This document shows, piece by piece, positions 2,366-56,613 of a DNA stretch of 64,000 nt. The notes under the pieces are model-generated. The model did not search any database. It worked only from the letters and a program-made list of their open reading frames with translations, and had not been told where the DNA came from. Where the stretch lies: positions 47,727,187 through 47,791,186 of the forward strand of contig NC_088301.1 of NCBI RefSeq assembly GCF_032854445.1, in the 5' to 3' direction. A program made the position numbers and the translations under genes. The stretch's first letter is position 1. Each line of letters opens with the position of its first letter. The stretch comes from Liolophura sinensis (taxonomy: Eukaryota; Mollusca; Polyplacophora; Chitonida; Chitonidae).

Positions 2366-3640
2366 TTACAAGTGTAGCAAGAACGATGCTTTGTCGGCAA
2401 ATTCCACCAATGTCAATTGTTCTCCCTGCAACTGTTCTATCAATCTTTGTAACTTCTCGTCCAGAGTCCGATATTTCCTCCTCTTTGGAGGGAAACGTCC
2501 ACCAGCTTGTAGCTGAGAGATTTTCAAATCTGTTAACGTCTGTTCTCTCTGAATGATGCGGATGAATTCAAAAAGGTTTGGATGTGATTTACCAGCGACT
2601 GAATTCATCCTATGATGCCACCCTTCAACGTTGATGTTCGTTCGGGCAGCCGTTGTATGATGGTGGTTCCACACGTCTCTGCCCCATACACCTTCAACCC
2701 AGTTTTCCGTCACATAATCCAAAAAATTCACACAATTATCGGTAGCAGGTGCTTCAGCCAAAGTGTTCAGCCAAACGTCGTCGATGTCCTCCGAGGCCAC
2801 AAGAGGTAACACTGCAGCACGTCGAACCATTTTCTGGATGTCGGGGTCATTTTTGTAAGCTGTCTGCAGACCATGTTTTTGGCAATTGTGCCAAATGCAT
2901 TGCGTGAAGTGGAAAAAACATCCTTTTACTTCTGTCGCTGGGAGGGATATTTCAACAGCATTATGAAAAGCCTTTTCAAAATCTGCCTGAATTGTAGAGG
3001 GTTGGAAGACAGCACCTTCCTGAAGAAAAGCGTGTTTGATCAGATGAAGCATTCTTTGGTATGTTTGTTGACGTCTGTCCGGAAGCAGTGCATACACTAA
3101 CGGGAAAATCTTCCCCTCAGCCACTCCATGAAGTGAGTAAACCTGATCGAAAATACTGGGGGCAAGGTAAAAAGTACCATCGCAGTATACAGTAGGTGAC
3201 TGGCAAAGTGTTCTGAGATTCTCTGCAGTGGTGAAGATCAGTATCTTGTCTTCGCTCCCATCATCAGCGAAAAGGAAAGAGTAGTGTGTCGGGAGCAGGA
3301 GAGCGTCTTCCGGTGATTCATTATGCAACTTTGCCAGTTCGTCGTCATAGATCGTTGGTATTGGCGTAAGTTCTTCTCTGGCTCTTTTAAGGATAGTTTT
3401 CTTCACGTCTTGAACTTTTCTGCTGAAAGAACTCGCCGTGTGTTCGTGGGGTTTCTCTCCAACGTGAGAGAGTATACGATTTTTTGTTGGAACCGTAGCT
3501 TTGCAATTCTCAACTTTACATTTCCATGATTCCCAATCAGATTTTTTTCTGTTCAGTCGGTATTCGTAATTATTCCACACAAGAGTTACCCCACCTCTCG
3601 TAGTTGGTATGAATTCAAGTTGTGCTTGCACTGCTGCCAT
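2366..3640 (-). CDS. FLYWCH-MULE transposase, 424 aa, intact
   Basis: This single-exon ORF begins at an ATG inside the inverted repeats. Residues about 8-67 form a FLYWCH-type zinc finger with C41, C46, H65 and H67 (C-x4-C...H-x-H), a DNA-binding module often fused to MULE transposases. Residues about 145-345 fit the MULE transposase core. D154 lies in YCDGTF, D220 in QADFEKAF and E339 in NVEGWHHRMN, which gives a full DDE triad. C241 and H244 (GCFFHF) match the Cys-His motif usual between the second Asp and the Glu. The C-terminal part (about 385-410) is basic and probably helical. The protein would cut and rejoin the element ends in the nucleus. No stop or frameshift breaks it, so it may be active. 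It is more GC-rich than its surroundings. Confidence 0.93.
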   Translation of the reverse strand: MAAVQAQLEFIPTTRGGVTLVWNNYEYRLNRKKSDWESWKCKVENCKATVPTKNRILSHVGEKPHEHTASSFSRKVQDVKKTILKRAREELTPIPTIYDDELAKLHNESPEDALLLPTHYSFLFADDGSEDKILIFTTAENLRTLCQSPTVYCDGTFYLAPSIFDQVYSLHGVAEGKIFPLVYALLPDRRQQTYQRMLHLIKHAFLQEGAVFQPSTIQADFEKAFHNAVEISLPATEVKGCFFHFTQCIWHNCQKHGLQTAYKNDPDIQKMVRRAAVLPLVASEDIDDVWLNTLAEAPATDNCVNFLDYVTENWVEGVWGRDVWNHHHTTAARTNINVEGWHHRMNSVAGKSHPNLFEFIRIIQREQTLTDLKISQLQAGGRFPPKRRKYRTLDEKLQRLIEQLQGEQLTLVEFADKASFLLHL

Positions 3641-3817
3641 GATGTTACTTAATGATTGTCTCGACGTCTGCGATCGTATTTATTGTGATAAGTGAGTAAA
3701 GTTCTGCCAGTGTCACTCTGATGCAAACGGTATTCACCATCAAGACTTCAGTGAGCATTGCGCTTCTACTAAGTTCACTCAGCCGATGAGTGAGAGACGC
3801 TCAGTAGGAACCCATTA

Positions 3818-8058: not shown

Positions 8059-8139
8059 ATGAGTGAAAGAGGGCAACCGTGTCCCCGTGACCTATTGAAC
8101 CTTCCTTACTTCTACACCAACTTCAGGTCATCAGAACAG
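8059..8139 (+). CDS. Gene A coding exon 1
   Basis: 27 codons end CAG|GTAACA in phase 0. They encode the start of SH2 (LPYFYTNFRSSEQ). A good acceptor (GATTATGCTTCAGCAG, ending 8026) lies upstream, so the exon may continue 5' as untranslated sequence. Confidence 0.65.
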
Positions 8140-11100
8140 GTAACAAGATGATGCAGTTAGTGCAACATTTTATACATGTGGTAAAGTACTTACATGTAGA
8201 ACTTAATTTATCAAGCAGGAAAAGAGCAAGATGAAAAACTGCTGTGTTAGGCTATTATAAATTCATTTGGCAAACATTTATTTCTATACCAGGAGTCACT
8301 TGCCTTCAGTGGCTTTCCTTTACTCCTAGTGTTATGTCAAAGCCATTATTCATATATATATTCATATTCATGAGAAATATTTGTCAGACTGGAATCATTA
8401 TGACAATATATATGTAAACATTTCTTTTATTTAACATCCTCAAGATTCTAAAAGTTCCAGGTTTGACAATTTCCTGTTTTCACAAAATATATGTAGACAG
8501 AATTACAAAATATAATAAAATATACATCCTCATGCATGCATAGTTTGTCAGGGTGAGTAGTTGTATCAAATTTCAGTATACATTTACATGCAATAGACTC
8601 AGGGTTGATCCATCTGAATAGTTTGGACACCCTTTAGATATGGAAAGCTCTCAATTTCATAATTTTAACATATAAACATGTTTAACATAAAAGTATAAAA
8701 ATGTTGTCATTTGAGATCCCAAATTTATAGCCCCCAAACCCTTACAACTACTATGGGTGCGTTATGCAAATATCCCAATTATGAAAATCGCAGTGTGAAA
8801 TATTATATCTTATAAGTTTATTTGCAGTTTAAAAGCAAAATTTGTAATATCTTGCAGACAAAAATGTATTATACTGGTAGGATTGCATGTGAATTGCATA
8901 AAAGTTATAAACTAATATTAAATACACTATTTCTTCAATCTTTTCAACTCCATCTTCATCCAGTATTTTGAAACATTCATGATTTAGAGAGAACAGTTGG
9001 GTGTAGAGAACAATTTGCACAGCCAGTTTTATGAAGCTTGCATCTTTAATGATACAAACAAATCAGGTTTTTAGCATCATGTTCATAATAATTGTGTGCA
9101 TGATAAATTCCACTGAAAATGGGCTTAAGTAGATGAAGATTTACAGTACTCTTATATGTGAGGACATGATCTCTGACTTATGTTTGTGATAAAATTTATG
9201 GAGAAATTAGGGAATATGTTCATTGGCTGTGTTGTTGGTTAGCGCTCTAGCGCAGCGTAGTGAGTCTCTCACCAATGCGGTCGCTGTGAGTTCAAGTTCA
9301 GCTCATGCTGAATTCCTCTCTGGCCGTATGTGGGAAAGTCTTTCAGCAACCAGCGGATGGTCGTGGGTTTCCACCCACCATAATGCTGGTCTCCGTCGTC
9401 TAAGTGAACTATTCTTGAGTACTGGGTAAAACACCAATCAAATAAATAAATAAATAAATAAATTAGTTGTGTTGATCAGTGTTCATGTGACCCTGTTGCA
9501 AAAGGTTCACAATGTTCACAGATCAGGGAATTGATCTTTTGAATGGGCTGTGAGTTCAAGTCCAGCTCATGCGGAATTCCTCACTGGCCGTACATGGGAA
9601 AGTCTTTCAGCAATCAGCGGATGGTCGTGGGTTTCCACCCACCATAATGCTGGCCGCCATCATATAAGTGAGCTATTCTTGAGTACGGCTTAAAACAACA
9701 ATCAAATAAATAAATAAATAAATTGGCTGTGTTGATCAGCATTCTTGTGACCCTGCTGCAAAAGGTTCACAGTGTTCACAGATCAGGGAATTGATCTTTT
9801 GCCACATTCCTTTACATTGGCTGTGTTGATCAGCGTTCATGTGACCCTGCTGCAAAAGGTTCACAGTGTTGATCTTTTGCCATATTCATTTACATTTGCT
9901 GTCAATGTTGACAGGTGAAGCAATTCTTGTACCGCCATAGGAATAGACCTGGCTCCTATATTCTGAGACCAAGTTTTTCAAAGCCTAATTGTGTGTCGGT
10001 CTCTGTAGTGTAAGTATGTGGGTTTCTCACTTTAATATCTGGCCTATATGTACATAACGGTAAGCAATGTACCAATGAGTCAGATTTGAAATTTGATATC
10101 TCAGTCATTAAGTTAAAGATTATTTTGTCTTTTGTATAATTTTAATTCTATCTTAATATGCCTAATTCAGTTGATATTCTGTTTCGTGAATAAGTTTAAT
10201 AAGATGTAGTCGTTGGCCAATATGTTTTTTCACTGGAGCTCACAAGACCTTGGTTTGATAAATAGTTTCTAAAAATTAATATGTTAAACATTGTGTTAAA
10301 TAGATTGTTGATAATGCAGAAAAAAAAAGAAAAGCATTTTCCACAAAGGGCGTTTTGCTTCATAGAGACTTACTTCCCTTGATGTGAATTAAAATTAGGT
10401 CAAATGTGTATACATGTTCATACCTAAACTGCTGTGCAAACTGATTATTTCTGCTTGTAATGTTTGACATGTAGTTGAGTGAATGAAATGAAGAAATCAT
10501 TTTATCTTGAGTAGGCTCTCCACAGGAGACATTCGGCACCTGAACATCCACCTTGATACAGCTCAGTCAGAGTATTACCTGGTGCCAGAATGCAAATTTC
10601 TCAACATACCTGCTCTCCTGGAATACTATCGGGTTAACCCTGTCCACAATGAAGAGCAGGTCACAAATGTCCGCTTTCTTAATCCTGTAAAAAGACATGC
10701 CAGGCATAATACGGACCCTGCACTGACCACCAGTAACTACATGAGCCTGGTCATGTCAGAGGGGCAGTCATCCTCACAGATGAATGGCAGTAGCAGGAAT
10801 CGGTCTGGAAGCGACTTTGGGATACAGACTCAGGGCCACTCTCCGCAAAGAATTTTGTCTACGCGAAGTGAAGGGAGAATACAGCCAGACAGAGGCCGAT
10901 CAGAGCGGATGACCAGATCTGGTAGTTTGCCGGACAACCCGTCAAGACGCTCTCCCCATGACAAGTTACCTACTGTTCCAAACGTAGCGCCAGGAAATGT
11001 TCTGTCACATCGCCCGCCAGCTGCTCTGCCTAATGGGCACATCCATGAATTTGGAACAGAATACTCACAACCACGTGCTTCAGATGTGGACATGTCCCAT

Positions 11101-11373
11101 CGACTACAAGCAACGCTTCGGGAAAATGAAATATCTGGTATTTGCGACTGCGGGCTGCCAACAAAAGAGTCACAGTTACCAGAAGGATGGTCAGTTCACC
11201 AGACAGCAGTTAATTCCAGCAACCGTTTGTTTTACCAGAGTCCTGAAAGTCGAACATTCTGGGTACTGCCTGAACAAATTGCCTCCCAGCTTACAGAAGA
11301 ACACAAAGAAAATATTAAAAAGCTTGAGGAAATATGTAAAGCTGCCACTCCAATTGAAGAAGAAAAAGCGTGA
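8059..11373 (+). CDS. SH2-WW adaptor-like protein A, 344 aa, three coding exons
   Basis: The joined exons are 8059-8139, 9915-10009 and 10515-11373, 1,035 nt in frame. The start ATG at 8059 has an in-frame stop two codons upstream. Residues about 15-100 form an SH2 domain: PYFYTNFRSSEQ at the N end, then GSYILRPS with the phosphotyrosine-binding arginine at about R45, then RHLNI with the conserved His at about 67, then the YYLV...ALLEYY end. A polar, Ser/Arg/Pro-rich linker follows. Next comes CDCG at about 269-272 and a WW-like domain at about 280-315, with tryptophans near 284 and 308. No kinase domain, signal peptide or membrane span is present. It is probably a cytoplasmic phosphotyrosine and proline-motif adaptor. 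A paralogue lies at 20172-23806. I recognise no orthologue name. AATAAA at 11920-11925 may end the mRNA. Confidence 0.78.
9222..9463 (+). mobile_element. tRNA-derived SINE, family A
   Basis: It has a tRNA-like head with an A-box-like GTTGGTTAGCGC and a B-box-like GAGTTCAAGTTC. A body ending CCATAATGCTGG...TATTCTTGAGTA...GTAAAACACCAATC and an (AATA)n tail follow. The same body recurs at many places in this window. The gene A intron contains it. Confidence 0.8.
9284..9895 (+). repeat. Tandem duplication, 264-bp unit, carrying the SINE 3' part
   Basis: The block from GCTGTGAGTTCAAGT through the SINE body and tail to GATCTTTTG is repeated from 9547. A third partial copy of the flank (GTTGATCAGCGTTCATGTG) begins near 9825. 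The headless SINE at 9541-9722 is therefore probably a duplication product, not a separate insertion. Confidence 0.75.
9541..9722 (+). mobile_element. SINE family A, 5'-truncated copy
   Basis: It has the B-box-like segment, body and (AATA)n tail but no A box. It is the second unit of the local tandem duplication. Confidence 0.75.
9915..10009 (+). CDS. Gene A coding exon 2 (SH2 FLVR-like strand)
   Basis: The acceptor TGTTGACAG is followed by 95 nt and donor GTAAGT. It starts in phase 0 and ends two bases into a codon. It encodes GSYILRPS, the SH2 phosphotyrosine pocket motif. Boundaries and phases match exon 22488-22594 of the minus-strand paralogue. Confidence 0.85.
10515..11373 (+). CDS. 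Gene A coding exon 3 (SH2 end, linker, WW-like)
   Basis: The acceptor ending AG at 10514 supplies the single base that completes the split Val codon. The alternative AG at 10525 has the wrong phase. The exon runs open to TGA at 11371-11373. Confidence 0.88.
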
Positions 11374-11919
11374 TCTGCTTCTTTCAAGTTTGTGGTAGAG
11401 TATGTGGTGTAAGACATGAAAATAACTTTAATTAATGAATTTAATAAGACACTTTTTGTGTAAGCAAGGTGATCATGTGGAATATAATAATGTGTAACAG
11501 TGCTGCATTTATGAGAAAACAACAATATGCACTAAGGTAGTAAAAGGATCAGACTGTCGACACATAAGAACTCTTGTTGCTTTAAGAGCTTGTTGAGTTT
11601 TCCCCTGCCTTCTTTTTATTTACAACAGTGTACATGTGGTATGAAAATACATATTTGCTCATGCTTAAATAGGTACCCAATAATGTGATAATTAGTTTAT
11701 GTTTTATGTACTCCGACTAATGTTAAGCAGTGCATCATTAATTTCATATTCTAATCATGCTAAACTTTGTGCTGATAATTTCTTTTGTTGAAAGTGTGCT
11801 ACAGAACATAATGTAAGTTAAGCTATTCAGGTCTTCATGCAAGTATTGGAGCAAACATAAAACTGAAACCAGACTAATATAATGTGAATATATTATGTTG
11901 TTATTGTTTCAAAATCAAG

Positions 11920-11925
11920 AATAAA
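11920..11925 (+). terminator. Candidate polyadenylation signal, gene A
   Basis: AATAAA about 550 bases after the stop codon of the SH2-WW gene. Confidence 0.4.
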
Positions 11926-12280
11926 GTTTCAGAAATTTATAAAGCGAGACGCATCATACATTTTTCAAATGAATGGAATAACTTTAACACTGAAAATAGT
12001 ACAGGTTTGAGTCTGATATTTACTGAAAGGTATTTCATATGTAAAGGTTTAGCATTTTTACGTGATTTTCATTGATTCATCAATCATAGGGGTCCATTTA
12101 AGAGGCCAGTTATGACTTTTGTCGGAGAATTTCACTATAATTCAAATGGTATAATTACACTTTTTTTGTTGAGATCAAACATCTTAACTTTATTATGATA
12201 CATAATCCCATATTTCTTGAAACCATTATTATTCATGGCTAGAAAATAGTATTGTAGGACACAAATAAGCAATGAACCAG
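11926..12280. other. AT-rich 3' flank of gene A
   Basis: No gene, SINE or tandem repeat is visible in this short stretch. Confidence 0.4.
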
Positions 12281-12282
12281 GA

Positions 12283-12465
12283 GCCTTTCACCAATGTACT
12301 TGCTGTGTTTTCAAGTGCGTTTGGATATGTCTGCCAGCAACCAGCAGATGGTTGTAGATTTCCACAGCACTCTGCCTCCCACCACCCCCCCCCCACCCAC
12401 CATTATGCTGGCCACCGTCATATAAATGCAATATTCTTGAGTAGTAAAACACCAATCAAATAAAT
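12283..12465 (+). mobile_element. SINE family A, diverged copy
   Basis: The body segments CAGCAACCAGCAGATGGTTG, TATGCTGGCCACCGTC, ATATTCTTGAGTA and AAACACCAATCAAATAAAT are present. A C-run interrupts the middle. Confidence 0.75.
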
Positions 12466-12469
12466 AAGC

Positions 12470-14740
12470 AAAACATCCAGGAATTGTAGCTTATCTATAT
12501 GGAAAAATGCAGTTCAAATTATAGGAGATCTAGGTCCTCATTTAGATATTACTTCTAAATACATGTATACAGTCAATTTTGGTGTTCACTCCTTTTAAAC
12601 TGATCTAATTGCCATATTGCTTTATAGCACATAGTTGGAACTGTGTACAATATTGTTTTTATACATAGGGAAGTGGCAGAAAGTAAGCAGGTCTGTACAG
12701 CACAAAAGATTTTGTAGAAACTAGAGGGAACAAAATTTAGTGAAGTTTCTGGCACGCATACAGTGTATTCTTGTAAATTAAAATATACTGTCTGTTTTCT
12801 GTTTTTCTGAATGAAAAATGACTGGTACCCTTGTATTTACTCAGCTGATCACTCATTTTCTGCCCTAATTATATATTTTTTTTAGTTTCTATAGACAAAA
12901 ATTGTGATAATGTGTAATGTACATATTTTTTTGTTTACTTTTATAATTAGTATTACTTTTTCTCAGATTTTAATGTTCAGGGTCCTTCAATGCTTAAATC
13001 ATCATTGGGTTGCATATACTCAAATGTAGCACAATTTTAGCCCTGTGAATGCTTGTTTGTCACATGTATTTACCTTAGTATTGCTATTTGTGAATGACTG
13101 CTTTTGTATGATGTATTTTATATTTAAAGTTTTTATCAATTTAGTGTAAGCTGGCATATGGAAGTCTGGTCAGAATGCTGTTAAAATTGTTGGAAATATA
13201 GATTCTAATTTATACAGCATAAGTCTAAACTGTATATATAAATATTGGGCAGAAAAATGTTTCGCGTTGCACTTATATATGTGTCTACTTACGGTATAAT
13301 CATTGTGTATAGCTAACTTAATAAGGCTCTTCTGACTTCATTTCTACTTTTTATCATTTTTGGAAATGCAATTGGAAGATGCTCAATCAAGCATTGCTCT
13401 GACTAGTATTACTAAGTGTCATTATCAGAAAAGGAATGGGATGTTTGCAATTTGTTAAAAGGGAAGATGCATGTATGGATACAAACCTCAGTTTGTGCAC
13501 ACGGGCACCTAATGTGTGTCTCAGACATGCAGCATCATTTGAGTAAGCCGGGATTGGGTTGTATTAGTTAAGTCTGCCAGTACTTACAGACTAATACTTG
13601 AAACAAGTGAGTTTAATTAAGAGTGTGGACCCGAGTAAATTCTGATAGATAATGAACAGTTACAAGTGATTGGATTTCACTTGAGTTTCACAATGTCATT
13701 CCATCTAAAACTTTATATATCCTGTCCGTTTGGTTTCACCTTCACAATTTTCAGTCTGTGTGAAGTACGATTTTGAGTCAGATTAGAATTTAATGGTTTT
13801 GAAATAATCCTACTCAAACCTTTGCGGTTTAGCCACCTGTTGTAATACACATGCACAATCTAAATTTCGAATGGATCATTTAACCAATTACCAAATTTTT
13901 GGAACTGAAAAAAAATCTTCTTTGAAGATGTATAATTTTCTTGTTGTATATAAGCCATCAGTTAAACTGGATGGGTTCAGGTAGAAAACAGATTCCTTGT
14001 GTTAGCTTAAGGTAATGTGTTTGTGGTTATCTTAAACTGGTGTTACAAAACCAAATGTGAATAGATTTGGACCAAACATTGTTACATACATTCTTGTTTG
14101 TAGTTGACATATAGTTTATTCAACTGTTACAGAAGTTTTGTTATCGAATTACTGCTGCATTCTGTCGTCATAACATGCATGTTGGGTACTGTAAATACAT
14201 GATAATATTGAATACATGCAATTTCTTTGTTCGCCACTGTTATGTACATTGTTTATGATCTACATAGATCACATTCCATACCCCCCTACCCCTCTTCTTT
14301 AGGTACAATTTTTTTGTGTATTTTTTTTGTACTGTTTCTGATTTGATTTCATTGTGGGTGTTCGAATCCAGTTTTCACTGCTTTGACCGTCAGGATTTTG
14401 ACAGGGTTATTATGCCTTATGGAGGGTAATGATTTACTCCAGGCATTCCGATTTTCTCCACCAATAAACCTAACTGCTCGTAGCTCAGAAGGATTTGTTC
14501 TTCATCGGGAGTGCAAAAGCTTTGGGATCGAGAATATGTAGATCCGACACTTAGGACCTTCAAAAGGCCTTACTTCATGTTTTGTATCCTGTACTGATTA
14601 GAACAAACATTGCCCCCCCCCCCCCCCCAAAAAAGCAAAAATTGATTTAATTAGCATATATGAGTACATCAACTAAATCAGTGCCATAATGAACTCCAAA
14701 TTATGGTAATAATCGAAAAAAAGTACCAAAAATACAATCC
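12470..14740. other. Non-coding region
   Basis: AT-rich, with no supported gene. A 16-18 base C homopolymer lies at about 14613-14628. Confidence 0.45.
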
Positions 14741-14744
14741 AACT

Positions 14745-14991
14745 CTCAAAAAATAATCTGTTAAATTTAATAGATAGTCTGTTATCTGATTGATACTAGA
14801 ATGTATTCTTTTATTGCAGCAAATTGTTCTGTTCAATATGACACACATATTATGTTCAATATAGTGATTCTATTAGACTAACAGGATATCATATTGAATA
14901 TAACAGAATATTGTGTTATAATAATAGGATACATTCTACCATCACTCAGACAACAGACTTTCTGTTAAAACTAACCTGTTGATTTTTTGAG
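14745..14991. mobile_element. MITE with long inverted repeats, copy 1
   Basis: It begins CTCAAAAAAT and ends ATTTTTTGAG. The outer 65-70 bases on each side are inverted partners with mismatches, and both contain AGTCTGTT and TAGAATGTAT. The element is about 247 bp and non-coding. A second copy of the same family lies at 40235-40484. Confidence 0.8.
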
Positions 14992-15840
14992 TGAATGTGT
15001 ATGGTAATTAAGGATCAGTTTATTTTGTGTCAGTTTCATGAGCTTGATTAAGTACATTAACGTAACCAATGCTAAAATGAATTTTCTCTGGTGCAGCTGG
15101 ATTTGGGATTGGGGCTTAAAAACAAGAGATAACTCTCCTGTGATCAAAACATTCTCACAGAAGACATTGTTAAAACTGCATGTAGAACAGAATAAGGGAT
15201 TAAATGCTTTATTCAAACGTTTCTGGTATTTTTATGTGTGGTTCTTGGTTACATAAATATATTTTACTAATAACTTTGATTTAGAAGTGTTAAGTGGGAA
15301 AATAACATTTGCATGCCATGTGATCGCCCCCTGATTGCGTATTACGCCAGATTTCTATGGACCAGTGCTAATACACCAAAATTTTAGGCCAAACAAAGTT
15401 TACATTCTTTCGTGACCCAGGAATCGCAGACTATAATAGAGGATTCAGACATGGAGTGTAATAAATATAGCTGTATAAATAATCCGTAACGTGATTTCAC
15501 CTACAAAAATGGTTCATTTAAATTCAGTCAACCCTTGCTTGGAGATACCAGCATAAACATTAAGGGAAATTCACGCAGTTTGCAAAGCAAGTCCTAAAGC
15601 AATCTGCAATCTGGATTTATGGATTTAAATCTAAATTATGGGATTAAATTTAAATAATGGAATTAAACAATAAATAATTTGGCGCTCATTATGGCCCTTT
15701 TTAATTGAAAAAAGTGTATGAATAGGCACTGAGGATATATCAGTTCTTAAATATCATAACTTCGAATGTATTTAAGCACTTGCTTGATTGATGTATTGGT
15801 CAATGCCAAAAAAACTGATTTCTTCTGGGTGGGGTGGGGT
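14992..15840. other. Non-coding, AT-rich
   Basis: Overlapping ORFs on both strands near 15.0-15.2 kb show no domain. A short AAATTTAAAT-type direct repeat lies near 15620-15670. Confidence 0.4.
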
Positions 15841-15844
15841 GGAG

Positions 15845-16160
15845 TGGGGGGTTGTTGCTCAGGGGGCCTAGTGCATGGAATGCCCGCCTCGAATTCGGGA
15901 AACCCCGGGATCAAACCCGGGTTGGGTCATAAGATTTTAAAAATGGAACTTGATGTTGCGACGCTTGGCGCTCAGCACTCGGAGGTTAATTCCGTTACCT
16001 GCCGTTACTTCAGTGGCGGAAGCACTTTGGCGCCATGGACTAACCTTGCGACATGAAGACAATAAATGTCCGCAGACCTTACTTCAGTGGCGGAAGCACT
16101 TTGGCGCCATGGACTAACCTTGCGACATGAAGACACAAAATGTCCGCAGACCTTACTTCA
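15845..16160 (+). mobile_element. tRNA-derived SINE, family B, copy 1, with expanded 3' unit
   Basis: A tRNA-like head carries a B-box-like GGGATCAAACCCGGG. It is followed by TTGGGTCAT, an AAAAATGGAACTTG segment and CTTGGCGCTCAGCA. The 3' part (ACTTCAGTGGCGGAAGC) repeats with a 74-bp period from 16005, 16079 and 16153 (2.2 copies). Related copies lie at 60318-60515 (minus) and 61864-62085 (plus). Confidence 0.75.
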
Positions 16161-16539
16161 GTGATGAAATAATTCATCAAACAGAAAATCATAGCTTTAT
16201 GGCGCGCTGGTCTGTTAACATATCGTCAACACTATTACTAAAATTTAAAATTTTACTCTTCAAGTGAGATAGCAATGCCTTATATTAGTACGTGGGCAAT
16301 CGCCAATACCAAAATAAGGACATCAGCAAGTTGAACCAACTAACATCATACTTGTTAGACAGACGGAAATAACAAATAGTTGCATCATCCTAGAAAAAGT
16401 CGTCAAGTAAAAATCTTAAAAGTGTTGAAAGCTTTAATGTCAGTAAGTTGACAAACCGACCGAAGAACCGGTTGTTCTGTGGTGCATTGGTTGGTGCATT
16501 ATCATTGGAAATTACCATGTAGAGCACCATATCGGATTT

Positions 16540-17395
16540 TTATGATAACAGCCACTCCTATTTGACCATTCGTCCATAAAGGGTATACATGTGCCAAATG
16601 TGGAATTGCCAGTTCTATTTGACCTTTCCTCCATAGAGAAGATGTGGCAAATGTGAAATCGCCAGTCCTATCTGACCTTTCATCCATAGAGAGGATGTGG
16701 CGAATGTAAAATCGTCAGTCCTATTTGACATTTCCTCCATAGAGAGGATGTGCCAAATGTGAAATCGCCAGTTCTATTTGACCTTTCTTCCACAGAGAGG
16801 ATGTGCCAGGTGTGAAATCGCCAGTTCTATTTGAACTTTCCTCCATAGAGAAGATGTGGCAAATGTGAAATCGCCAGTCCTATTTGACGTTTCCTCCATA
16901 GAGAAGATGTGGCAAATGTGAAATCGCCAGTCCTATTTGACCTTTCCTCCATATAGAGGATAGGCCAAATGTAAAATCGCCAGTCCTATTTGACCTTCCC
17001 TCCATAAGACAGGATAGGTCAAGTGTGAAATCGCCAGTCCCATCTGACCTTTCATCAATAGAGAGGATAGGTCAAATGTGAAATCGCTAGTCCTATTTGA
17101 CCTTTCACCCATAGAGAGGATGTGGCGAATGTAAAATCGCCAGTCCTATTTGACATTTCCTCCACAGAGAGAATGTGGCAAATGTGAAATCGCCAGTTCT
17201 GTTTGACCTTGCCTCCATAGACAGGATGTGCCAAATGTAAAATCGCCAGTCCTATTTGACCTTTACTCCTTAGAGAGGATGTGCCAAATGTGAAATCGCC
17301 AGTGCTTTTTGACTTTTACTCCATAGAGAGAATATGAAATATGTGAAATCGCCAGTCCTATTTGACCTTTACTAGTGTGTGTGCCAAAATGTGAA
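16540..17395. repeat. Minisatellite, 53-bp unit, about 16 copies
   Basis: The consensus contains AAATCGCCAGTCCTATTTG and CCATAGAGAGGATGTG. GCCAGT recurs at 16608 and 16661, and its variant GTCAGT at 16714, all 53 bases apart. Copies differ at scattered sites. Confidence 0.92.
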
Positions 17396-17399
17396 ACAG

Positions 17400-18775
17400 A
17401 TATATGTTCGAGGAACACACTGTTTTGTGCATTTGTTACGGACATCTGCTGCAGTCCATTAGGAAAAAAGAATAAAAAACACAAACAAAAAACAAAATAC
17501 AGTTGCACATTACCATTAATCTGTATCCAGCTCCGCTGAATATTGATATTGCACAACTTGGAAGCTTCAAGTGTATTCTTTTATAGACTAGAAAAGAAAG
17601 CGCAATGAGATATGTAAATATTAACTACATTATAATCAATGCAAATATTGTAAGCACTGCCATTAATCTTTATTAGGATAATTTCTGAATAGGAATTCAA
17701 GATCTTTACGCACATGTTTATGCATACTTTTGAATTAACTCAACACATTCTGATCAACAAGCCTATAAGCCTGATTTTAGGTTTCTGCGTTCGTGTTTAG
17801 AGGCAAGTGTCAGGAGTTTTGTCAGATGTTTGAAAAGAAACCCAAATTATGCTTAAGTAAGACAATTGCCGGGAGGTCGATAATTGTTCTTTTTGGTGTT
17901 TTTCTTTTTGCTAATCACAATTACGTACATCACTGCCTGTGATTATTGGTAAGAAATAAAGTCCACCGAAATAGTTGGCAGTGACAGTTCTTCCACAATC
18001 AAAGAAGGATTAAATATAAAGCCAATATCACACTGTTCGGATAGCACTTGCATGAAACAGTGCATGAATGGAGCATATCCCTGTGTTCTAATGCTACTGT
18101 GTTGGTATTCAACTGATGACAAGATAGCACAAGAAAGTAACTCCCAGAAAGAGACAAAGTGTTCATGATGAACAACATTTTGACTATAGCCTCTATCTTG
18201 CCGTTTTCAAGATACATAAGTAAATATGGAATATTCAAAAGATTATATGTGGCTTATTTTCACTTCAAGTAAAATATGAAAATAATATACGAAATTATTT
18301 CACCTTAAATTTCAAAGTAGCAATCTATACATTCAACAATATACATGTAGCTATTATCATATCATTTTCAAGATATACACGAAATAATAAAAACGGTATC
18401 CATAAGTGTTGTATTCATTTGTAGTAATTCCAACCAAAATTTCAGTCCTTCTCAGAGTTACTTTCCCTACATTTTTTTTTTAAAACTATTGTTGATTGTT
18501 CTGGATGAATCCAAACGAAGCAAGTTGTAACAAAGGCATGGTAATTTGATAATATATAATAGGAATGAGAATTTTATCTGCATGCCTTTTTATGATATAT
18601 ACTTGCTGTGGGTATTAGCACCAGGGCTTAGTTTATAAGAAATACATGGGAATACTTGAAATGAAAATAATTAAATATTAGTATAAGGAAGACTTCTATT
18701 TGCCTTTTAACAGACTTCCTATTATGGTACAGTCCGTTTGTTTTTTGGGGTTTTTTGGCTTGTTTCTTTTTTTGG
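17400..18775. other. Non-coding, AT-rich
   Basis: No supported gene or clear repeat. Confidence 0.4.
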
Positions 18776-19095
18776 AGGAAGAGCTCTAAAAAGAGCGCCC
18801 GCTTCATAGAAGTTCCCTTCTTAAAAGGGACTCCAATGGGACATCAGAAGGCCTGTTAAATACGGACAACGGACTGAGGTGGGGGGGGGGGGGACATGAA
18901 ATGAGCTTCCAGTGGGCTGTTGGAACGTAGTTGCCCAAGGGACTTCAGAGGAACTTCATAGACTAGTTTACATTTTAGAAGATACACGGGACTTCTGGAG
19001 GGCTTCTTGATCTTTGTCATTGTTGCCAAAAGTATTAGGAACTTGTGGGGAACTTTAGGGACTAGAACAAGCTTCCTGGGTTTCCATGGTTTAAT
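18776..19095. repeat. Degenerate GGGACTTC-rich sequence
   Basis: Variants of GGGACTTC, GGAACTT and AGAGG recur every 20-40 bases. The same style returns at 19735-20035. This looks like an old decayed minisatellite. Confidence 0.35.
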
Positions 19096-19734
19096 TGTTT
19101 GCTCTGCCATTTGAGTAATTCAATCTTTGGGGTAGTAATGGAGCACTCGTGTTTAAGATAGAACAGTGGGCAGTTAGATGACGTGGAATGTATAGAAAAA
19201 TGGCCCCTTACAAAATGGACTGCCAGTTGACCAGAATGAATTCGGAGTTGGAATATATGCATAATCTGTTCTTTCTAAATCTTACAAACAAATTTTGCAT
19301 TAGTGACACTGTGAGATGAAGACTATCTAGCTGAGCTACAGTGATAATTTTGTGTTTACAAGTAAATTAAACCTCCATGCACATGTGCAACAGAACCATC
19401 TTCACAGCCTGTAGCCTGTACACACATTTTACCAATACTGTAATGTAGAGGATAAGCAGTGTAAATTGAACTTACATTTATCACGAACTTTTAGACAAAC
19501 AATATGCTGTTTTGCATACTGCAGTATATAAGTAGATATAATTCAGTCATAATTTATTAATAAATACAGTAATACAAATTTTATTTTGTGACTATTACAT
19601 TTAATATATACTAATCTTTATCCTTTTCATTATCACGTGGGAAGACAATATAGATATTAGAAAGCATGTGGAAATAAACTTTTCACTTTGCGCAAAAAGC
19701 CTTTAACAATATGTACAAACTCAAACCCTAGTTG

Positions 19735-20035
19735 TTAGTGTCAGGAGCTTCAGGAGGTGCTGCTAAGGGACTTACATTGGGGGTTACTTCGGTGGTGCTT
19801 GTAGGCGACTCAATCTGCAGGGGCTTCACAGGAACTTCCGGAAGTCCATTGAAGCTTCATTTGCATTTATTACACGGGTTTCAGAGGGACTTCCCAATGA
19901 TAATTCACACTACTCAAGGGAATTCCCCAGAACAACTGTACAATGGAAGTTGTACTCTTGAAGCGGAAGCTCCTAATTAGAGACATAAATCGTACTTCAG
20001 AGGGACTACAAGGGAACTTTTAAGAGGACATTTGT
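19735..20035. repeat. Degenerate GGGACTTC-rich sequence, second block
   Basis: Segments such as TTCAGAGGGACTTC and CAGAGGGACTAC share motifs with 18776-19095. No coding role is supported. Confidence 0.35.
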
Positions 20036-20042
20036 AGTTTGT

Positions 20043-20046
<4 letters not shown>

Positions 20047-20086
<40 letters not shown>
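20047..20086. repeat. (TA)n microsatellite
   Basis: About 20 TA dinucleotides, downstream of gene B. Confidence 0.95.
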
Positions 20087-20089
<3 letters not shown>

Positions 20090-20171
20090 AGCGGGGCATT
20101 AAACATGTCCTTGATCATTTTACGATCAACTGTGCGTTAACCCACCTATGAATTAATTCAGGTCATTTAAG

Positions 20172-21033
20172 CTATTTGTACTTCTGTATGACACATCCCT
20201 GAGACTCTGTTAAAAAGGGTTTGATTTCATCTGGGATATCCCATAGTGTGCTCCCATCGACGTTTTGAAAAAAGACATTCCCGGTCGCGATATCCCTGTG
20301 CAAGGTCCAGTTTAAGGGCATCACACTTTCTTCGATAAGAATTCCACAGTGACACCTCTGTGCATGACGCTTATCATCCAAGCGCAGGTTGAAAATGAGG
20401 TCTGGTACACGGTTCCTATCACTAGGAATGGGCTCCGAATAAATAATGTTTCCCTCCCCACCTGAGGAAGTATTGGCGCAGTCAAAAACGTGGCAAGATC
20501 TGCGTGTTGGCCGTGGAGCAACTGGCGGGGGTATTTTTTGCCTGAGTGATAGACCAGCATCCACCTTCTGGGCCCGACCTTCTGGTACTCTCGTTTCTGA
20601 CCCGTGAGACGGCCTTTCCCCCATGGCTACATGCTGGGGCCTGTTGTTATTAGAAGGACTGGGCAGTTTTGTCACACTAACAACAGATGATTCAGCACCG
20701 CTTTCTTTGAAAACTACCTCAAAAATGGATGTTATCGGCATGGTTGTTGGATTTTGGGTGTCCTGAAATGGAGTCAAAATCACCTGCATCACAGGAGAAT
20801 TTTCACTGCGCAATATGTGTCTTAGCATATCTTCGGTGATACCTTTACGCAAAATGGCAGATGTCAGTTTGAGACCTGACAAGGCACCGTCAGGTTCGTG
20901 AAAGCTGTGACGCCGATGATAGTCCACTAAAGCACTGATATGCGGGAACGCCTCATGTCGCCCGTTGCAGCAAACGAATTTTTTGTTTCTGTCAACTGAT
21001 ACCCGGAAATGGCGAAAGTTCTTACAATCCAGT
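20172..21033 (-). CDS. Gene B coding exon 3 (SH2 end, Pro-rich linker, WW-like)
   Basis: On the minus strand the acceptor reads TTCTTTTCTTGACAG. The first base completes the split Val codon. The stop is TAG at 20174-20172. Confidence 0.9.
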
Positions 21034-23806
21034 CTGTCAAGAAAAGAATAAGACGTCGCAACCAGTCACAGCAAATTTAAGGGAGGCAAAATTAAAGGAC
21101 ACATGCACTGAATCCTCAGTGCTGGGTTAGCTGGATGGTTGTCGTTGATGTGATGCATGTATGTATATTGGCAACAACCAATGGAATTAACGGAAGTGAT
21201 CTTCTCCACTCTAATCTAGTGAGACTAATGAATAAGCCGTTAGTATTCGTCTGTTTCTACTCAAGCTGTTCGATATGGTAATCAGTGTGCATATAACTAG
21301 AAAACACTATGATAATCTCATATGTTCGTATTGGCTGAGATGTGTACTTACGAACAGAAAAGATTTGTTTCTTTATTTAATTGGTGTTTTACGCCGTACT
21401 GAAGAATATTTGACTTATACGACGGCGGACAGCATTACGGTGGGAGGAAACAGAAGGAAAGAACCTTAATGTGATTGGAAAGGAATACGTTATTAAGGTA
21501 ATGTGCCAAAATTTAAAATATCACTATTCTTTCATGTTTGGTGGTGTTTATATAAAATCTGAGATTCAATTCCCTCAACACACTTTCATTTCATTAAATT
21601 CATATTAAACTTAAGGTACCGTATACCTAATATTTACAGCATGATCACATGATCATACAGATTACAGTGATCTGTAATGATTTACATGATTCCACCCAGT
21701 CACAGCATACAGACACATATATGACGTCGCAACCAGTCAAAGCATATTGTCACAGATATGATATTGCAACCAGCCACAGTTAGCATACAGACACAGATAT
21801 GGCGTCCCACCCAGTCACAGCATACAGACACAGATAAGATGTCGCAACCAGTTACAGCATATAGACACAGATATGACGTCGCAACCAGTCACAGCATATT
21901 GTCACAGATATGATATTGCAACCAGCCACAGTTAGCATACAGACACAGATATGGCGTCCCACCCAGTCACAGCATACAGACACAGATAAGATGTCGCAAC
22001 CAGTTACAGCATATTGTCACAGATATGATATTGCAACCAGCCACAGTTAGCATACAGACACAGATATGGCGTCCCACCCAGTCACAGCATATAGACACAG
22101 ATATGATGTCGCAACCAGACAGCTGGCATATGCATGGGCAGTGATATGGCGCCCCACCCATTCACAGCATATAGAATATATCTGAAACAATCTGTCTGGT
22201 GAGTAACAAGGGCTTTACAAACCCAGTTGTGAACAAATCACGAAACCGTCCGATATTTTGCCGGAAATAGGAAGCAGTGAAGGCACCAGTGACTCGGTTG
22301 GCCCGAAACAGTTCATACTAAGAGGAGAAGCTTGCAATAGATAACAGATATACAGCCAAATTACGTTGTAACATTGTTCACTGCCAAGTGCAAATACAAT
22401 AATTAGCGTTTCAATTGCTCTACTGAACAGTTATGTATATGCGCAAGACGATCCAGTCACTATTGATTCAGATAGCACTATACTCACACAACTGTAAGAG
22501 TAAGGGCCTGAGGATCTGTTAGGCTTGGTCGGAGGAAGAAAACTCCACGGAAGTCTTCGATGATCCTACAGGCATACACTGCTAATCTGTCCACCTACAA
22601 TAAATATTTGCATGTATATCTCTGTAGAGTATGCAACAGCTTTCTTCATTCATTCAGCAAAAATGGAAAATAAGAGACAGGCAATGGTAGGCTCCACCAT
22701 AAAGTTATTAGATAGTAAAAAAAGTCAAACTGGATTAAAATTTTACTTATTTACTTATTTGATTGGTGTTTTACGCAGTACTCTAGAATATTTCACTTAT
22801 ACGACGGCGGCCAGCATTATGGTGGGAGGAAACCGGGCAGTGCCCGTGGGAAACCCACGACCATCCGCAGGTTGCTGCAGACCTGGTGAGAGGCTCCTGG
22901 ATCATTGCGCTGTGCTAGCGCGCTAACCGACTGAGCCACGGAGGCCCCTACTGGATTAAAATAATTACATGTAATTTTAAATAAGTATACATGCAAGTTA
23001 AGGAAAACCAAAGAAGCTTCATGTCTAGTGCGTGGTTATAATTTGAAGAATCTGGCCTGTTAATTAAATTTTATTGTGGTACCAACCTCTTGTAAATGCA
23101 TGCCATAATACATGGGTAAGTGATGCCAATGTTGTTGTAAAGTCATTTATGTAACATACATGCATACTTTTGCATTTCTTCGAAGAAGCATATTTCTTGT
23201 CAATTTTCTCTTCCCACAAAAGTGGTCTGCATACTGAATATGCTACAGTGAATGAACAACTAGAGGACGGTGATCCACGTTTTCAAGTAATGCCACATTA
23301 TCGCGAGCGTTTGGATGCATTTATCCACTAATGATTCATATATGCATTTATGCTCTCATTCCTATGTCACTGGCCAAAATTCGTTTGATAGTTAAAATAC
23401 ATATATATGAAAGCATAAAGTGATCTGAGACAAGGATCCGCTTTGACGATTTGTTAGGGGCATTTTTACCCCAAATCAATAGTGCTAAATGATGTTTTTA
23501 TTTGGTTTCCATCTAGCTGGGTCAAAGCGGTTCTCACCTGAGTGATAATCCTTTCAGCGGGGCGAAGAGGTTATCAGTCAGGTGGGAACCAAAGAAAATG
23601 GTAGAAAACTGTACCGGTATACAAAAAGGTAGATGTTGTATACAGGCAGTCACAGTGGCTGAAATGGTAGTAAAACTGGTGACATGAACATTAGATCTTA
23701 GTGTAGAGATTTTTGCATATCTTCTTGGTCTTACCTGGTCCAGATTTTCAAAATAATCGTGAAAATAAGGTTGTCGTGATGCCTCATTATACCACACGGG
23801 TGTCAT
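20172..23806 (-). CDS. SH2-WW adaptor-like protein B, 346 aa, paralogue of gene A
   Basis: On the minus strand the exons are 23806-23735 (from ATG), 22594-22488 and 21033-20172, 1,041 nt in frame. Residues about 13-105 form SH2: PYFHDYFENLDQ, then GVFFLRPS with the binding arginine at about R46, then NFRHFRV with His at about 68, and HISALVDYH near the end. The linker holds a PPPVAPRPTRR motif at about 229-239, a likely SH3 ligand, and a YSEP tyrosine motif near 258. CHCG at about 287-290 precedes a WW-like domain with Trp near 302 and 324. Both introns match gene A in position and phase. The two genes converge, 8.8 kb apart. The first exon stays open upstream of its ATG to an acceptor at 23847, so a longer N-terminus is possible. 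No established name is recognised. Confidence 0.78.
21369..21455 (-). mobile_element. SINE family A, 3' fragment
   Basis: The reverse strand carries the CAGCAT/CCACC end, ATATTCTTCAGTACGGCG and AAAACACCAATTAAAT. It lies in an intron of gene B. Confidence 0.75.
21690..22180. repeat. Minisatellite, about 37-bp unit with higher-order pattern
   Basis: The unit resembles CACAGATATGACGTCGCAAC then CAGTCACAGCATA. Variants (GCGTCCCACC, ATATTGCAACCAGCC) recur in fixed order, with the same multi-unit block near 21748, 21897 and 22013. A single unit also sits at 21053-21075. The array lies inside gene B's intron. Confidence 0.85.
22488..22594 (-). CDS. Gene B coding exon 2 (SH2 FLVR-like strand)
   Basis: On the minus strand the acceptor TTTATTGTAG is followed by GTG at phase 0. 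The donor is GTGAGT after two codon bases. It encodes GVFFLRPSLTDPQ. Both boundaries have the same phase as gene A exon 9915-10009. Confidence 0.87.
22743..22948 (-). mobile_element. SINE family A, near full-length copy
   Basis: Read on the minus strand, a tRNA-like head GGCCTCCGTGGCTCAGTCGG is followed by TTAGCGCGCTAGC. The standard body and an AAATAAGTAAATAA tail come next. It is the best-preserved member in this window, and its tRNA-like head is unusually clear. Confidence 0.88.
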
Positions 23807-23846
23807 TATCGTGAGAGCAGCATCGGGAGGTTTGGAGATACTTCGC
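23735..23846 (-). CDS. Gene B first recognised coding exon
   Basis: The donor reads GACCAG|GTAAG in phase 0. The acceptor TTTTGGTGCTTTTAG ends at 23847. ATG at 23806 gives 24 residues before the junction, close to the 27 of gene A. The 13 codons upstream of it are also open, so this may be an internal exon. Confidence 0.75.
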
Positions 23847-23849
23847 CTA

Positions 23850-24485
23850 AAAGCACCAAAATGCAAAATCATTTCATATGTAATAATCTAGCTACACTAC
23901 CAAATGGCCATCATATGGAGCTTTCGTGACACATTACCTCAAAGTACAAAAACCGAAATAATTTTATTTAGGACTATCAAGTGACAAACTTAAATGATTT
24001 CAATTAGCAATATCAGGTGCCCCATATAATGGACTTTTGTTCACCTTCTTCGAAATTAGCAAAATCCAAATTCATTTGACTTAGTTTTATAAAGTATCCA
24101 ATATAGGCCCCTAAGGGAATATTGAAAATCTTTTTCTAGGTGAAATCATAGCAATTCTCAAAATCATTTCATAAAATGCCTTGAAGTGGACAATATAAAA
24201 TGCCGTTTTGGTGAAAGCAGCAAAACTCAAACTCATCTCATCATCTCTTACTTTCGTTACCAATACAAAGTCCTTTTCGAAGACTTTTCCTTGTTGAAAG
24301 CAGCATAATCCAACATAATTTGCAACAACATTTAAGACTATATGAAGTGGCAAGTGTCGAAAATAGGGACATTGCCCAACGCAGGGAAACTTTACCTAAG
24401 AGAAACAAAACTCAAGTCAACTTAGTTAGGACACACAGGGACCAAAATACGGGACTTGCGGCGACCTTTCCAAGCTGAAAGTAAA
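23850..24485. repeat. Degenerate minisatellite, roughly 60-65 bp unit
   Basis: Blocks like GCAAAACTCAAACTCATCTC and ACTATATGAAGTGGCAAGTG recur in diverged form across the interval. The absence of stops on one strand creates an 80-codon frame that I treat as chance. Confidence 0.55.
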
Positions 24486-26120: not shown

Positions 26121-26130
26121 TCTTATAACA

Positions 26131-26560
26131 TAACATATATCACATCACCACACCACATAGCATAATATAACATATATCACCACACCACATAACATAATAT
26201 AACATAAATCGCAACACCACATAACATAACATATATCACATCACCACACCACATAGCATAATATAACATATATCACCACACCACATAACATAATATAACA
26301 TAAATCGCAACACCACATAACATAACATATATCACATCACCACACCACATAGCATAATATAACATATATCACCACACCACATAACATAATATAACATAAA
26401 TCGCAACACCACATAACATAACATATATCACATCACCACACCACATAACATAATATAACATATATCACCACACCACATAACATAATATAACATAAATCGC
26501 AACACCACATAACATAACATATATCACATCACCACACCACATAACATCACATCACGTCAC
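26131..26560. repeat. Minisatellite, 96-bp unit, about 4.5 copies
   Basis: CATATATCACATCACCACAC starts at 26134, 26230, 26326, 26422 and 26518, exactly 96 bases apart. Each unit is itself built of CATAACATAA and CACCACACCA sub-blocks. Confidence 0.95.
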
Positions 26561-31253: not shown

Positions 31254-31723
31254 GTGGGTATTCAGGGTAGTCTATAGTCTATGATAATATAAGCATAGTC
31301 ATGCGCATCGTCATGCTCTTCAGTCGTGCGTAGTTAAAACCATAACTGTGGGTAGTCAGGGTAGTCTATAGTCTATGATAATATAAGCATGGTCATGCGC
31401 ATCATCGTGCTCTTCAGTCGTGTGTAGTTAATACCATAACTGTGGGTATTCAGGGTAGTCTATAGTCTATGATAATATAAGCATAGTCATGCGCATCGTC
31501 GTGCTCTTCAGTCGTGCGTAGTTAAAACCATAACTGTGGGTAGTCAGGGTAGTCTATAGTCTATGATAATATAAGCATGGTCATGCGCATCATCGTGCTC
31601 TTCAGTCGTGTGTAGTTAATACCATAACTGTGGGTAGTCAGGGTAGTCTATAGTCTATGATAATATAAGCATGGTCATGCGCATCATCGTGCTCTTCAGT
31701 CGTGTGTAGTTAATACCATAACT
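31254..31723. repeat. 94-bp tandem repeat, five copies in A-B-A-B-B order
   Basis: GTGGGTA starts at 31254, 31348, 31442, 31536 and 31630. Type A has CATAGTCATGCGCATCGTC and GTGCGTAGTTAAAACC. Type B has CATGGTCATGCGCATCATC and GTGTGTAGTTAATACC. The alternation shows growth by duplication of a 188-bp dimer. Confidence 0.95.
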
Positions 31724-31765
31724 GCCTGTTTCTGTCACATATGAAAGCCGCTTAAGGCCATCATG

Positions 31766-50720: not shown

Positions 50721-50731
50721 CAGCAGACAAT

Positions 50732-56500: not shown

Positions 56501-56613
56501 GGAAATCTCCTAGAAAACACTGGGACAGAGCTCCTTGTAATGCACCACATAACAGTAACTGAACAAAGCACATCCTGGCCAAACCATAGCACTGTGGGAA
56601 ACCTTTGATTTCC

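What the first reader, a model, noticed from the sequence alone, without database searches (positions are those of the whole stretch)
8059..23806. Convergent pair of SH2-WW genes with identical intron phases
Two genes, 8.8 kb apart and facing each other, encode 344- and 346-aa proteins with SH2, linker, CxCG and WW-like parts in the same order. Both SH2 introns fall at the same codon positions: phase 0 before a GTG codon, and a Val codon split 2+1. The sequences have diverged strongly, so the duplication is old. I know of no human protein with one SH2 and one WW domain in this arrangement. It would link phosphotyrosine and proline-motif signalling.
Basis: partly seen in the sequence, partly recalled or inferred. 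Interest (0 to 1): 0.78.

Follow-up and report, generated by a model that had tools for sequence, protein, structure and literature searches.

The report
Paired SH2/WW-like adaptor genes in chiton
Two neighbouring chiton genes that point towards each other are diverged copies of one gene and encode probable small signalling adaptors with a phosphotyrosine-reading SH2 domain and a likely WW domain, a layout already published from a sea star and a lancelet.

Summary
Gene A (8059-11373, +, 344 aa) and gene B (23806-20172, -, 346 aa) have GT-AG introns, lie tail to tail 8.8 kb apart and are homologous (BLASTP E 6e-17, 23% identity). Both carry an SH2 domain above Pfam's cut-off (36.3 and 26.0 bits). 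The C-terminal part is WW-like, not proven WW: Pfam and a home-made WW HMM miss it; profile-profile comparison favours WW over column shuffles and over MBD; predicted folds disagree. The intron argument is half right: intron 2 is a common SH2 intron here (9 of 29 other SH2 loci), intron 1 was seen in no other readable locus (0 of 27). Contig lengths point to the chiton Liolophura sinensis. The architecture is not new: a sea star SH2/WW protein (317 aa, RT-PCR confirmed) and a lancelet protein of the same layout were reported in 2024 (PMC11593052). Best reading: a duplicated mollusc version of that adaptor type. Orthology, expression and binding are untested.

The parts
8059..8139 (+). Gene A exon 1 (start codon; beginning of SH2)
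   Evidence: ATG after in-frame stops, donor CAG|GTAACA, phase 0
9915..10009 (+). Gene A exon 2 (SH2 helix A to strand C, includes Arg45)
   Evidence: acceptor GACAG|GTG, donor GT|GTAAGT, phase 2
10515..11373 (+). Gene A exon 3 (rest of SH2, linker, CxCG, WW-like domain, stop)
   Evidence: acceptor AGTAG|G, open frame to TGA
11062..11073 (+). Gene A linker motif Tyr242 Y-S-Q-P, matched by Y-S-E-P in B
   Evidence: alignment and motif listing
11143..11271 (+). Gene A CxCG (269-272) to end of WW-like segment (LPEGW to WxxP, residues 280-311)
   Evidence: read from sequence; profile-profile match to WW; not matched by PF00397
23735..23806 (-). Gene B exon 1
   Evidence: donor CAG|GTAAGA, phase 0; alternative in-frame ATG at 23872
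22488..22594 (-). Gene B exon 2 (SH2, includes Arg46)
   Evidence: acceptor TTGTAG|GTG, donor GT|GTGAGT, phase 2
20172..21033 (-). Gene B exon 3 (rest of SH2, linker, CxCG, WW-like domain, stop)
   Evidence: acceptor GACAG|A, open frame to TAG
20430..20441 (-). Gene B linker motif Tyr258 Y-S-E-P
   Evidence: alignment and motif listing
20232..20354 (-). Gene B CxCG (287-290) to end of WW-like segment (MPLNW to WDIP, residues 298-327)
   Evidence: AF2 model of 20175-20432, pLDDT about 78-87 from residue 31 on; WW chains among its top matches, none significant

Best explanation
The pair are old (or fast-diverging) tail-to-tail duplicates of one gene for a small adaptor: N-terminal SH2, a linker with no recognised domain, a CxCG motif and a C-terminal WW-like domain. 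Most likely the SH2 binds a phosphotyrosine on an activated receptor or docking protein, while the WW-like domain holds a proline-containing (possibly phospho-Ser/Thr-Pro) partner, so the protein bridges tyrosine-kinase signalling to that partner. The linker tyrosine conserved in both copies (Y-S-Q/E-P, a YxxP motif) may be a phosphorylation site that recruits a further SH2 protein. Shown here: gene structure in the DNA, homology, SH2. Inferred: WW identity, all binding, the role of the tyrosine, and kinship to the sea star and lancelet SH2/WW proteins.
For: GT-AG gene models. SH2 over Pfam cut-off in both. SH2 arginine kept (A Arg45, B Arg46), and an Arg-His pair in the next conserved stretch (A His67, B His68). 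Homology of A and B, each end significant on its own. Intron 1 is shared by A and B and absent at that place in 27 of 27 usable loci out of 30 fetched, of 45 genome matches. Trp-Trp spacing 24 (A) and 22 (B) with Pro three residues later. hhalign of the A/B C-terminal alignment with 20 WW domains of this genome: probability 92.6%, score 32.3; best of 300 column shuffles 16.6. AF2 model of B: Pin1, Ess1, TCERG1 and YAP WW chains among the best matches. The only tyrosine at matching places in the two linkers is Y242/Y258 in YSxP. A published deuterostome protein with only SH2 and WW, 317 aa.
Against: PF00397 matches neither protein, and a WW HMM from 20 domains of this genome gives only 3.3 and 3.0 bits, below the ten best of 2000 shuffled sequences (4.2-7.5). 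No Foldseek hit is significant for either model; the A model ranks Dsb dimerisation and MBD chains first, with Ess1 at Z 3.9. The stretch from the aromatic pair to the second Trp is one residue shorter than in most of the genome's WW domains (my reading). No RNA evidence was available. Homology to the sea star protein was not tested, its sequence not being held.
Confidence: 0.68

Rival explanations
1. The C-terminal part is not a WW domain but an MBD-like or other small beta-sheet-plus-helix domain, so the protein links phosphotyrosine to something other than a proline motif.
For: The AF2 model of A matches MBD3 chains near the top (Foldseek prob 0.85-0.89, E 0.11-0.14; VIA Z 2.7-2.8 over 56 residues); B also matches MBD chains at Z 2.5-2.9 over about 54 residues. 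hhalign to a five-row MBD alignment of this genome scores 22.2, above all 200 shuffles (max 14.8).
Against: WW scores higher (32.3 versus 22.2; probability 92.6% versus 21.0%), and genuine WW versus MBD itself gives 19.2, so part of the MBD score is generic. The second Trp and the WxxP ending are WW features (recalled consensus). Pfam finds no MBD.
Confidence: 0.15
2. GRB2/GADS-like adaptors in which a flanking SH3 was exchanged for a WW-like domain, rather than a separate SH2/WW family.
For: B's only two PDB hits up to E 1 are GADS SH2 (E 0.12 and 0.29), and A's include GADS, GRB2 and NCK1; [quoted passage not shown]
Against: A's best hit is BTK; B's hits are not significant; Pfam lists no SH3 in either protein; no tree was made.
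Confidence: 0.12
3. One copy (or both) is not a working gene: unexpressed, or a diverging copy losing function.
For: No transcript evidence here; B's SH2 match is weaker (26.0 bits).
Against: Both keep open frames of about 345 codons, clean splice sites, the SH2 arginine, two Trp and CxCG despite 23% identity, which is hard to keep without selection (inference).
Confidence: 0.05

Closest known systems
SH2/WW protein of the sea star Patiria miniata (transcript GGEY02085024.1, protein XP_038061760; the paper's table also gives XP_022098870.1), PMC11593052
   Same: Only an SH2 and a WW domain; similar size (317 aa versus 344 and 346); no characterised protein with the same domains found by BLASTP in that paper
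   Different: Sequence not held here, so similarity, domain order and CxCG were not compared; its WW was recognised by domain-database search, here the domain is only WW-like
[quoted passage not shown]
   Different: Not compared here; whether it relates to the SH3-SH2-SH3 bbGADS cloned in PMC5431462 is not known to me
Amphioxus bbslp76 (PMC5431462)
   Same: Adaptor with one WW and one SH2
   Different: 642 aa, has a SAM domain, WW next to SAM near the N-terminus and SH2 at the C-terminus: other order and length
GRB2/GADS/NCK adaptors
   Same: SH2 adaptors with a second peptide-binding module (recalled); among the closest SH2 domains in the PDB for A and, weakly, B
   Different: SH3, not WW, as the second module

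Membership tests
SH2 domain proteins | PF00017 above curated cut-off (21 bits) | tested here: met
   A 36.3 bits, B 26.0 bits
SH2 domain proteins | Phosphotyrosine-pocket arginine of strand B (FLVR-type motif; recalled) | tested here: met
   LRPS in both, Arg45 and Arg46
SH2 domain proteins | Binds phosphotyrosine peptides | not testable with these tools
   needs a binding assay
WW domain | PF00397 match over cut-off | tested here: not met
   no match in A, B or their C-terminal pieces; window absent among 48 genome matches up to E 10
WW domain | Two Trp about 20-24 residues apart, aromatic pair between, Pro three after the second Trp (recalled consensus) | tested here: met
   A W284, F298-Y299, W308, P311; B W302, F314-F315, W324, P327
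WW domain | Profile similarity to WW domains beyond chance | tested here: met
   hhalign score 32.3 versus at most 16.6 in 300 shuffles; but a plain HMM is at shuffle level
WW domain | Three-stranded WW fold | tested here: inconclusive
   B model resembles WW, A model does not rank WW first; two-row alignments, modest pLDDT
SH2/WW adaptor of sea star and lancelet (PMC11593052) | One SH2 plus one WW and no other domain | tested here: inconclusive
   SH2 met, no other Pfam family over its cut-off, WW unproven
SH2/WW adaptor of sea star and lancelet (PMC11593052) | Sequence homology to the sea star protein outside SH2 | not testable with these tools
   I found no collection here that holds the sequence
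MBD | PF01429 match | tested here: not met
   no match in A, B or pieces; window absent among 7 genome matches up to E 1

The most novel reading that the evidence does not exclude
SH2 - YxxP linker - CxCG - WW-like adaptors are an ancient animal family that was present in the common ancestor of molluscs, echinoderms and chordates, was lost from vertebrates, and was duplicated tail to tail on the chiton lineage; its diverged WW-like domain, preceded by CxCG, would be a subclass with its own ligand that current WW profiles miss.
Probability: 0.35. Interest if true: 0.5.

Novelty: new member of a known kind. Interest (0 to 1): 0.33.

Why it matters
If the kinship holds, a two-module adaptor joining phosphotyrosine and proline-motif signalling would be shared by protostomes and deuterostomes while, as far as I recall, unknown in vertebrates, on which most signalling maps are built. 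The duplicated chiton pair shows what such an adaptor keeps while the rest changes (SH2 arginine, linker YxxP, CxCG, two Trp). The find itself is modest: the architecture is in print and no function has been shown.

Tried and rejected
Pfam WW on whole proteins, on C-terminal pieces and genome-wide: no match at the window. A WW HMM from 20 domains of this genome (20 of 48 matches fetched): right place in both proteins but at shuffle level. MBD as the C-terminal domain: considered because of the A model; WW scores better, so kept as a rival only. Dsb dimerisation domains top the A model's VIA list (Z 5.3 and 5.1); the tool notes that Z under 8 may mean only a common arrangement, and no sequence evidence points there. 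DUF7028 (E 0.0092 and 0.0011, under its cut-off) covers about 30 residues of A's WW-like part and is not taken as membership.

Identical intron phase as proof of common descent: rejected for intron 2, seen in 9 (L034, L040, L043, L044, L047, L051, L054, L055, L057) of the 29 other fetched SH2 loci that cover the place (L058 does not). Kept for intron 1: 27 of 30 loci read through that place; L031, L038 and L058 were set aside because their reading frame is not SH2 across it. These counts are by eye from printed codons; L034's donor is the least clear; L052 and L053 are identical copies, L033 is an intron-free copy, and some loci are exons or domains of one gene, so the number of independent genes is smaller. 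Only 30 of 45 genome SH2 matches were fetched.

Relatives elsewhere: none confirmed in viral contigs (31 pattern stretches) or prokaryote genomes (88); neither is a place to expect them. I had no eukaryote collection beyond this genome. Paper searches for SH2 with WW; judged by titles and abstract starts, only PMC11593052 and PMC5431462 were on the point (open-licence library only, so absence of further reports means little). PMC5043372 was also opened (two passages on CRK introns) and not used.

Searches translated exon 3 in a wrong frame; replace them.

Full report
What is there. Gene A (+): exons 8059-8139, 9915-10009, 10515-11373, 344 aa. Gene B (-): 23806-23735, 22594-22488, 21033-20172, 346 aa. 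The four introns are GT-AG (donors GTAACA, GTAAGT, GTAAGA, GTGAGT) and both frames are open to the stop. The gap between the two stop codons is about 8.8 kb. Two ORFs of 90 codons or more lie wholly inside it: 15760-16056 has no Pfam hit, and 17263-17580, partly in a minisatellite, was not scanned. A's start is fixed by in-frame stops one codon upstream; B could also start 22 codons earlier, at 23872.

Are they homologous? Yes. BLASTP gives E 6e-17 at 23% identity, 82 of 354 columns. Taken apart, the SH2 part gives E 1.4e-10, the C-terminal part 6.5e-12 and the linker 0.004. Identity in aligned columns is 27 of 93 (SH2), 27 of 112 (linker) and 19 of 63 (C-terminal part). In the genome the two proteins have 5 and 4 matches at E up to 10: their own exons, each other, and one chance hit at E 2.3; a B C-terminal piece finds only itself and A. 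The duplication is old or the copies evolve fast; I cannot tell which.

Introns. Both introns sit at matching alignment columns and phases in A and B. But intron 2, which splits a codon about 14 residues after the SH2 arginine, has the same place and phase in 9 of 29 other SH2 loci of this genome that cover the spot. It is a common SH2 intron and says little about the pair. Intron 1, phase 0 inside the first SH2 helix, is read through without interruption in 27 of 30 fetched SH2 loci, the other three being set aside (30 of 45 matches fetched). It is the informative one and supports a shared origin of A and B. Both counts were made by eye, and the loci are not all independent genes.

Domains. 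SH2 is over the curated cut-off in both (A 36.3 bits at 19-97; B 26.0 bits at 39-99; cut-off 21). A's closest solved SH2 domains are BTK (E 1.1e-5), then NCK1, GADS and GRB2; B has only GADS, not significant (E 0.12). Both keep the strand-B arginine, and an Arg-His pair in the next conserved stretch, so phosphotyrosine binding is plausible.

The C-terminal part has two Trp 24 (A) or 22 (B) residues apart, an aromatic pair between them and Pro three residues after the second Trp, preceded by CxCG. Pfam's WW model does not match A, B or the pieces, and a WW HMM built from 20 domains of the same genome scores 3.3 and 3.0 bits, below the ten best of 2000 shuffled sequences (4.2-7.5; 881 of them reported). 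When the A/B alignment is compared with the 20-domain WW alignment, profile to profile, the score is 32.3 (probability 92.6%) against a maximum of 16.6 in 300 column shuffles. Singly, the pieces score 20.5 (B) and 27.3 (A). Against a five-row MBD alignment from this genome the score is 22.2 (probability 21.0%; best of 200 shuffles 14.8). AlphaFold2 with two-row alignments gives, for B (mean pLDDT 69.3, about 78-87 from residue 31 on), a sheet and C-terminal helix with WW chains among the best matches (Foldseek best Pin1, prob 0.84, E 0.38; VIA Z 4.8 for Ess1, 4.7 for the TCERG1 WW, but also 4.1 for a DsbG). For A (mean pLDDT 64.0, about 65-83 over residues 21-80) the best matches are Dsb dimerisation domains (Z 5.3 and 5.1) and, in Foldseek, a Dsb protein and MBD3, with Ess1 at Z 3.9. 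No Foldseek match reaches E 0.001 for either model. I therefore call the part WW-like, WW being the likeliest identity.

Linker. The two linkers share one tyrosine, Y242 in A and Y258 in B, in Y-S-Q-P and Y-S-E-P; A has a further linker tyrosine, Y134. YxxP is the motif read by Crk-type SH2 domains (recalled, not tested). B has a P-P-P-V-A-P-R-P stretch of SH3-ligand kind (recalled) that A lacks. Neither protein has a PPxY motif, so there is no self-ligand of that WW class.

Where it comes from. G000 has 632 contigs, and 10 of the 13 large contig lengths that the tool printed equal, to the base, scaffolds of the Liolophura japonica assembly GCA_032854445.1, which also has 632 scaffolds (the other three differ by 3-6 kb). 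A correction renames the animal Liolophura sinensis. The window's contig C7 has the length of that paper's scaffold_3. I saw passages of PMC11068029 and the whole of the correction PMC12441733.

What is known. PMC11593052 (I read its abstract, Results, Discussion 4.2 and the legends) reports a sea star egg transcript whose 951-bp ORF could encode 317 aa with only an SH2 and a WW domain, confirmed by RT-PCR and sequencing; [quoted passage not shown] PMC5431462 (passages only) describes amphioxus bbslp76 with SAM, WW and SH2, a different order. The combination is thus published in deuterostomes. The chiton pair would extend it to molluscs, but I could not compare sequences.

Mechanism. Most likely a bridging adaptor: SH2 on a phosphotyrosine, WW-like part on a proline-type ligand, and perhaps a phosphorylatable YxxP that calls in a third protein. 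The sea star authors suggest a bridge between tyrosine and serine/threonine phosphorylation signalling. Everything beyond gene structure, homology and SH2 is inference.

Verdict. Observation confirmed, interpretation partly supported, novelty modest: a new, duplicated member of an already described adaptor kind, with an unproven WW domain.

Noticed in passing
2366-3679 (-): 437-codon ORF with MULE transposase (44.5 bits) and FLYWCH zinc finger (31.1 bits) domains: probably a DNA transposon (8 of the 46 listed window ORFs were scanned there).
   Followed up: partly
56590-57870 (+): Single-frame rhodopsin-type GPCR-like ORF, 426 codons, 7tm_1 68.3 bits.
   Followed up: no
21692-22175: Minisatellite (overlapping rows with units of 37, 78, 115 and 152 bases) inside intron 2 of gene B.
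   Followed up: no
50731-53495; 16589-17370; 26125-26547; 31254-31724: Tandem arrays: about 72 copies of a 38-base unit, 15 of 53 bases, 4.4 of 96 bases, 5 of 94 bases.
   Followed up: no
about 9230-9460, 9520-9720, 12270-12460, 22760-22950: SINE-like repeats ending in 'aaacaccaatcaaataa..' in intron 1 of both genes and downstream of A; seen by reading; ARAGORN reports no tRNA in the window.
   Followed up: no
L031, L033 (G000:C7:35497724-35498155) versus L030, L034 (G000:C9:22230944-22232590): Two SH2 domains lie close together in one 162-codon open frame on C7, while very similar SH2 domains on C9 lie over 1 kb apart with stops between: may be a retrocopy of a tandem-SH2 gene.
   Followed up: no
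L052 and L053 (G000:C1:6963367 and C1:6998233): Two SH2 matches with identical protein sequence 35 kb apart: recent duplication or an assembly duplicate.
   Followed up: no
23806-23872 (-): In-frame ATG at 23872, 22 codons upstream of B's proposed start; between the two ATGs a pyrimidine-rich AG (23848-23847) could be the acceptor of an upstream exon.
   Followed up: no
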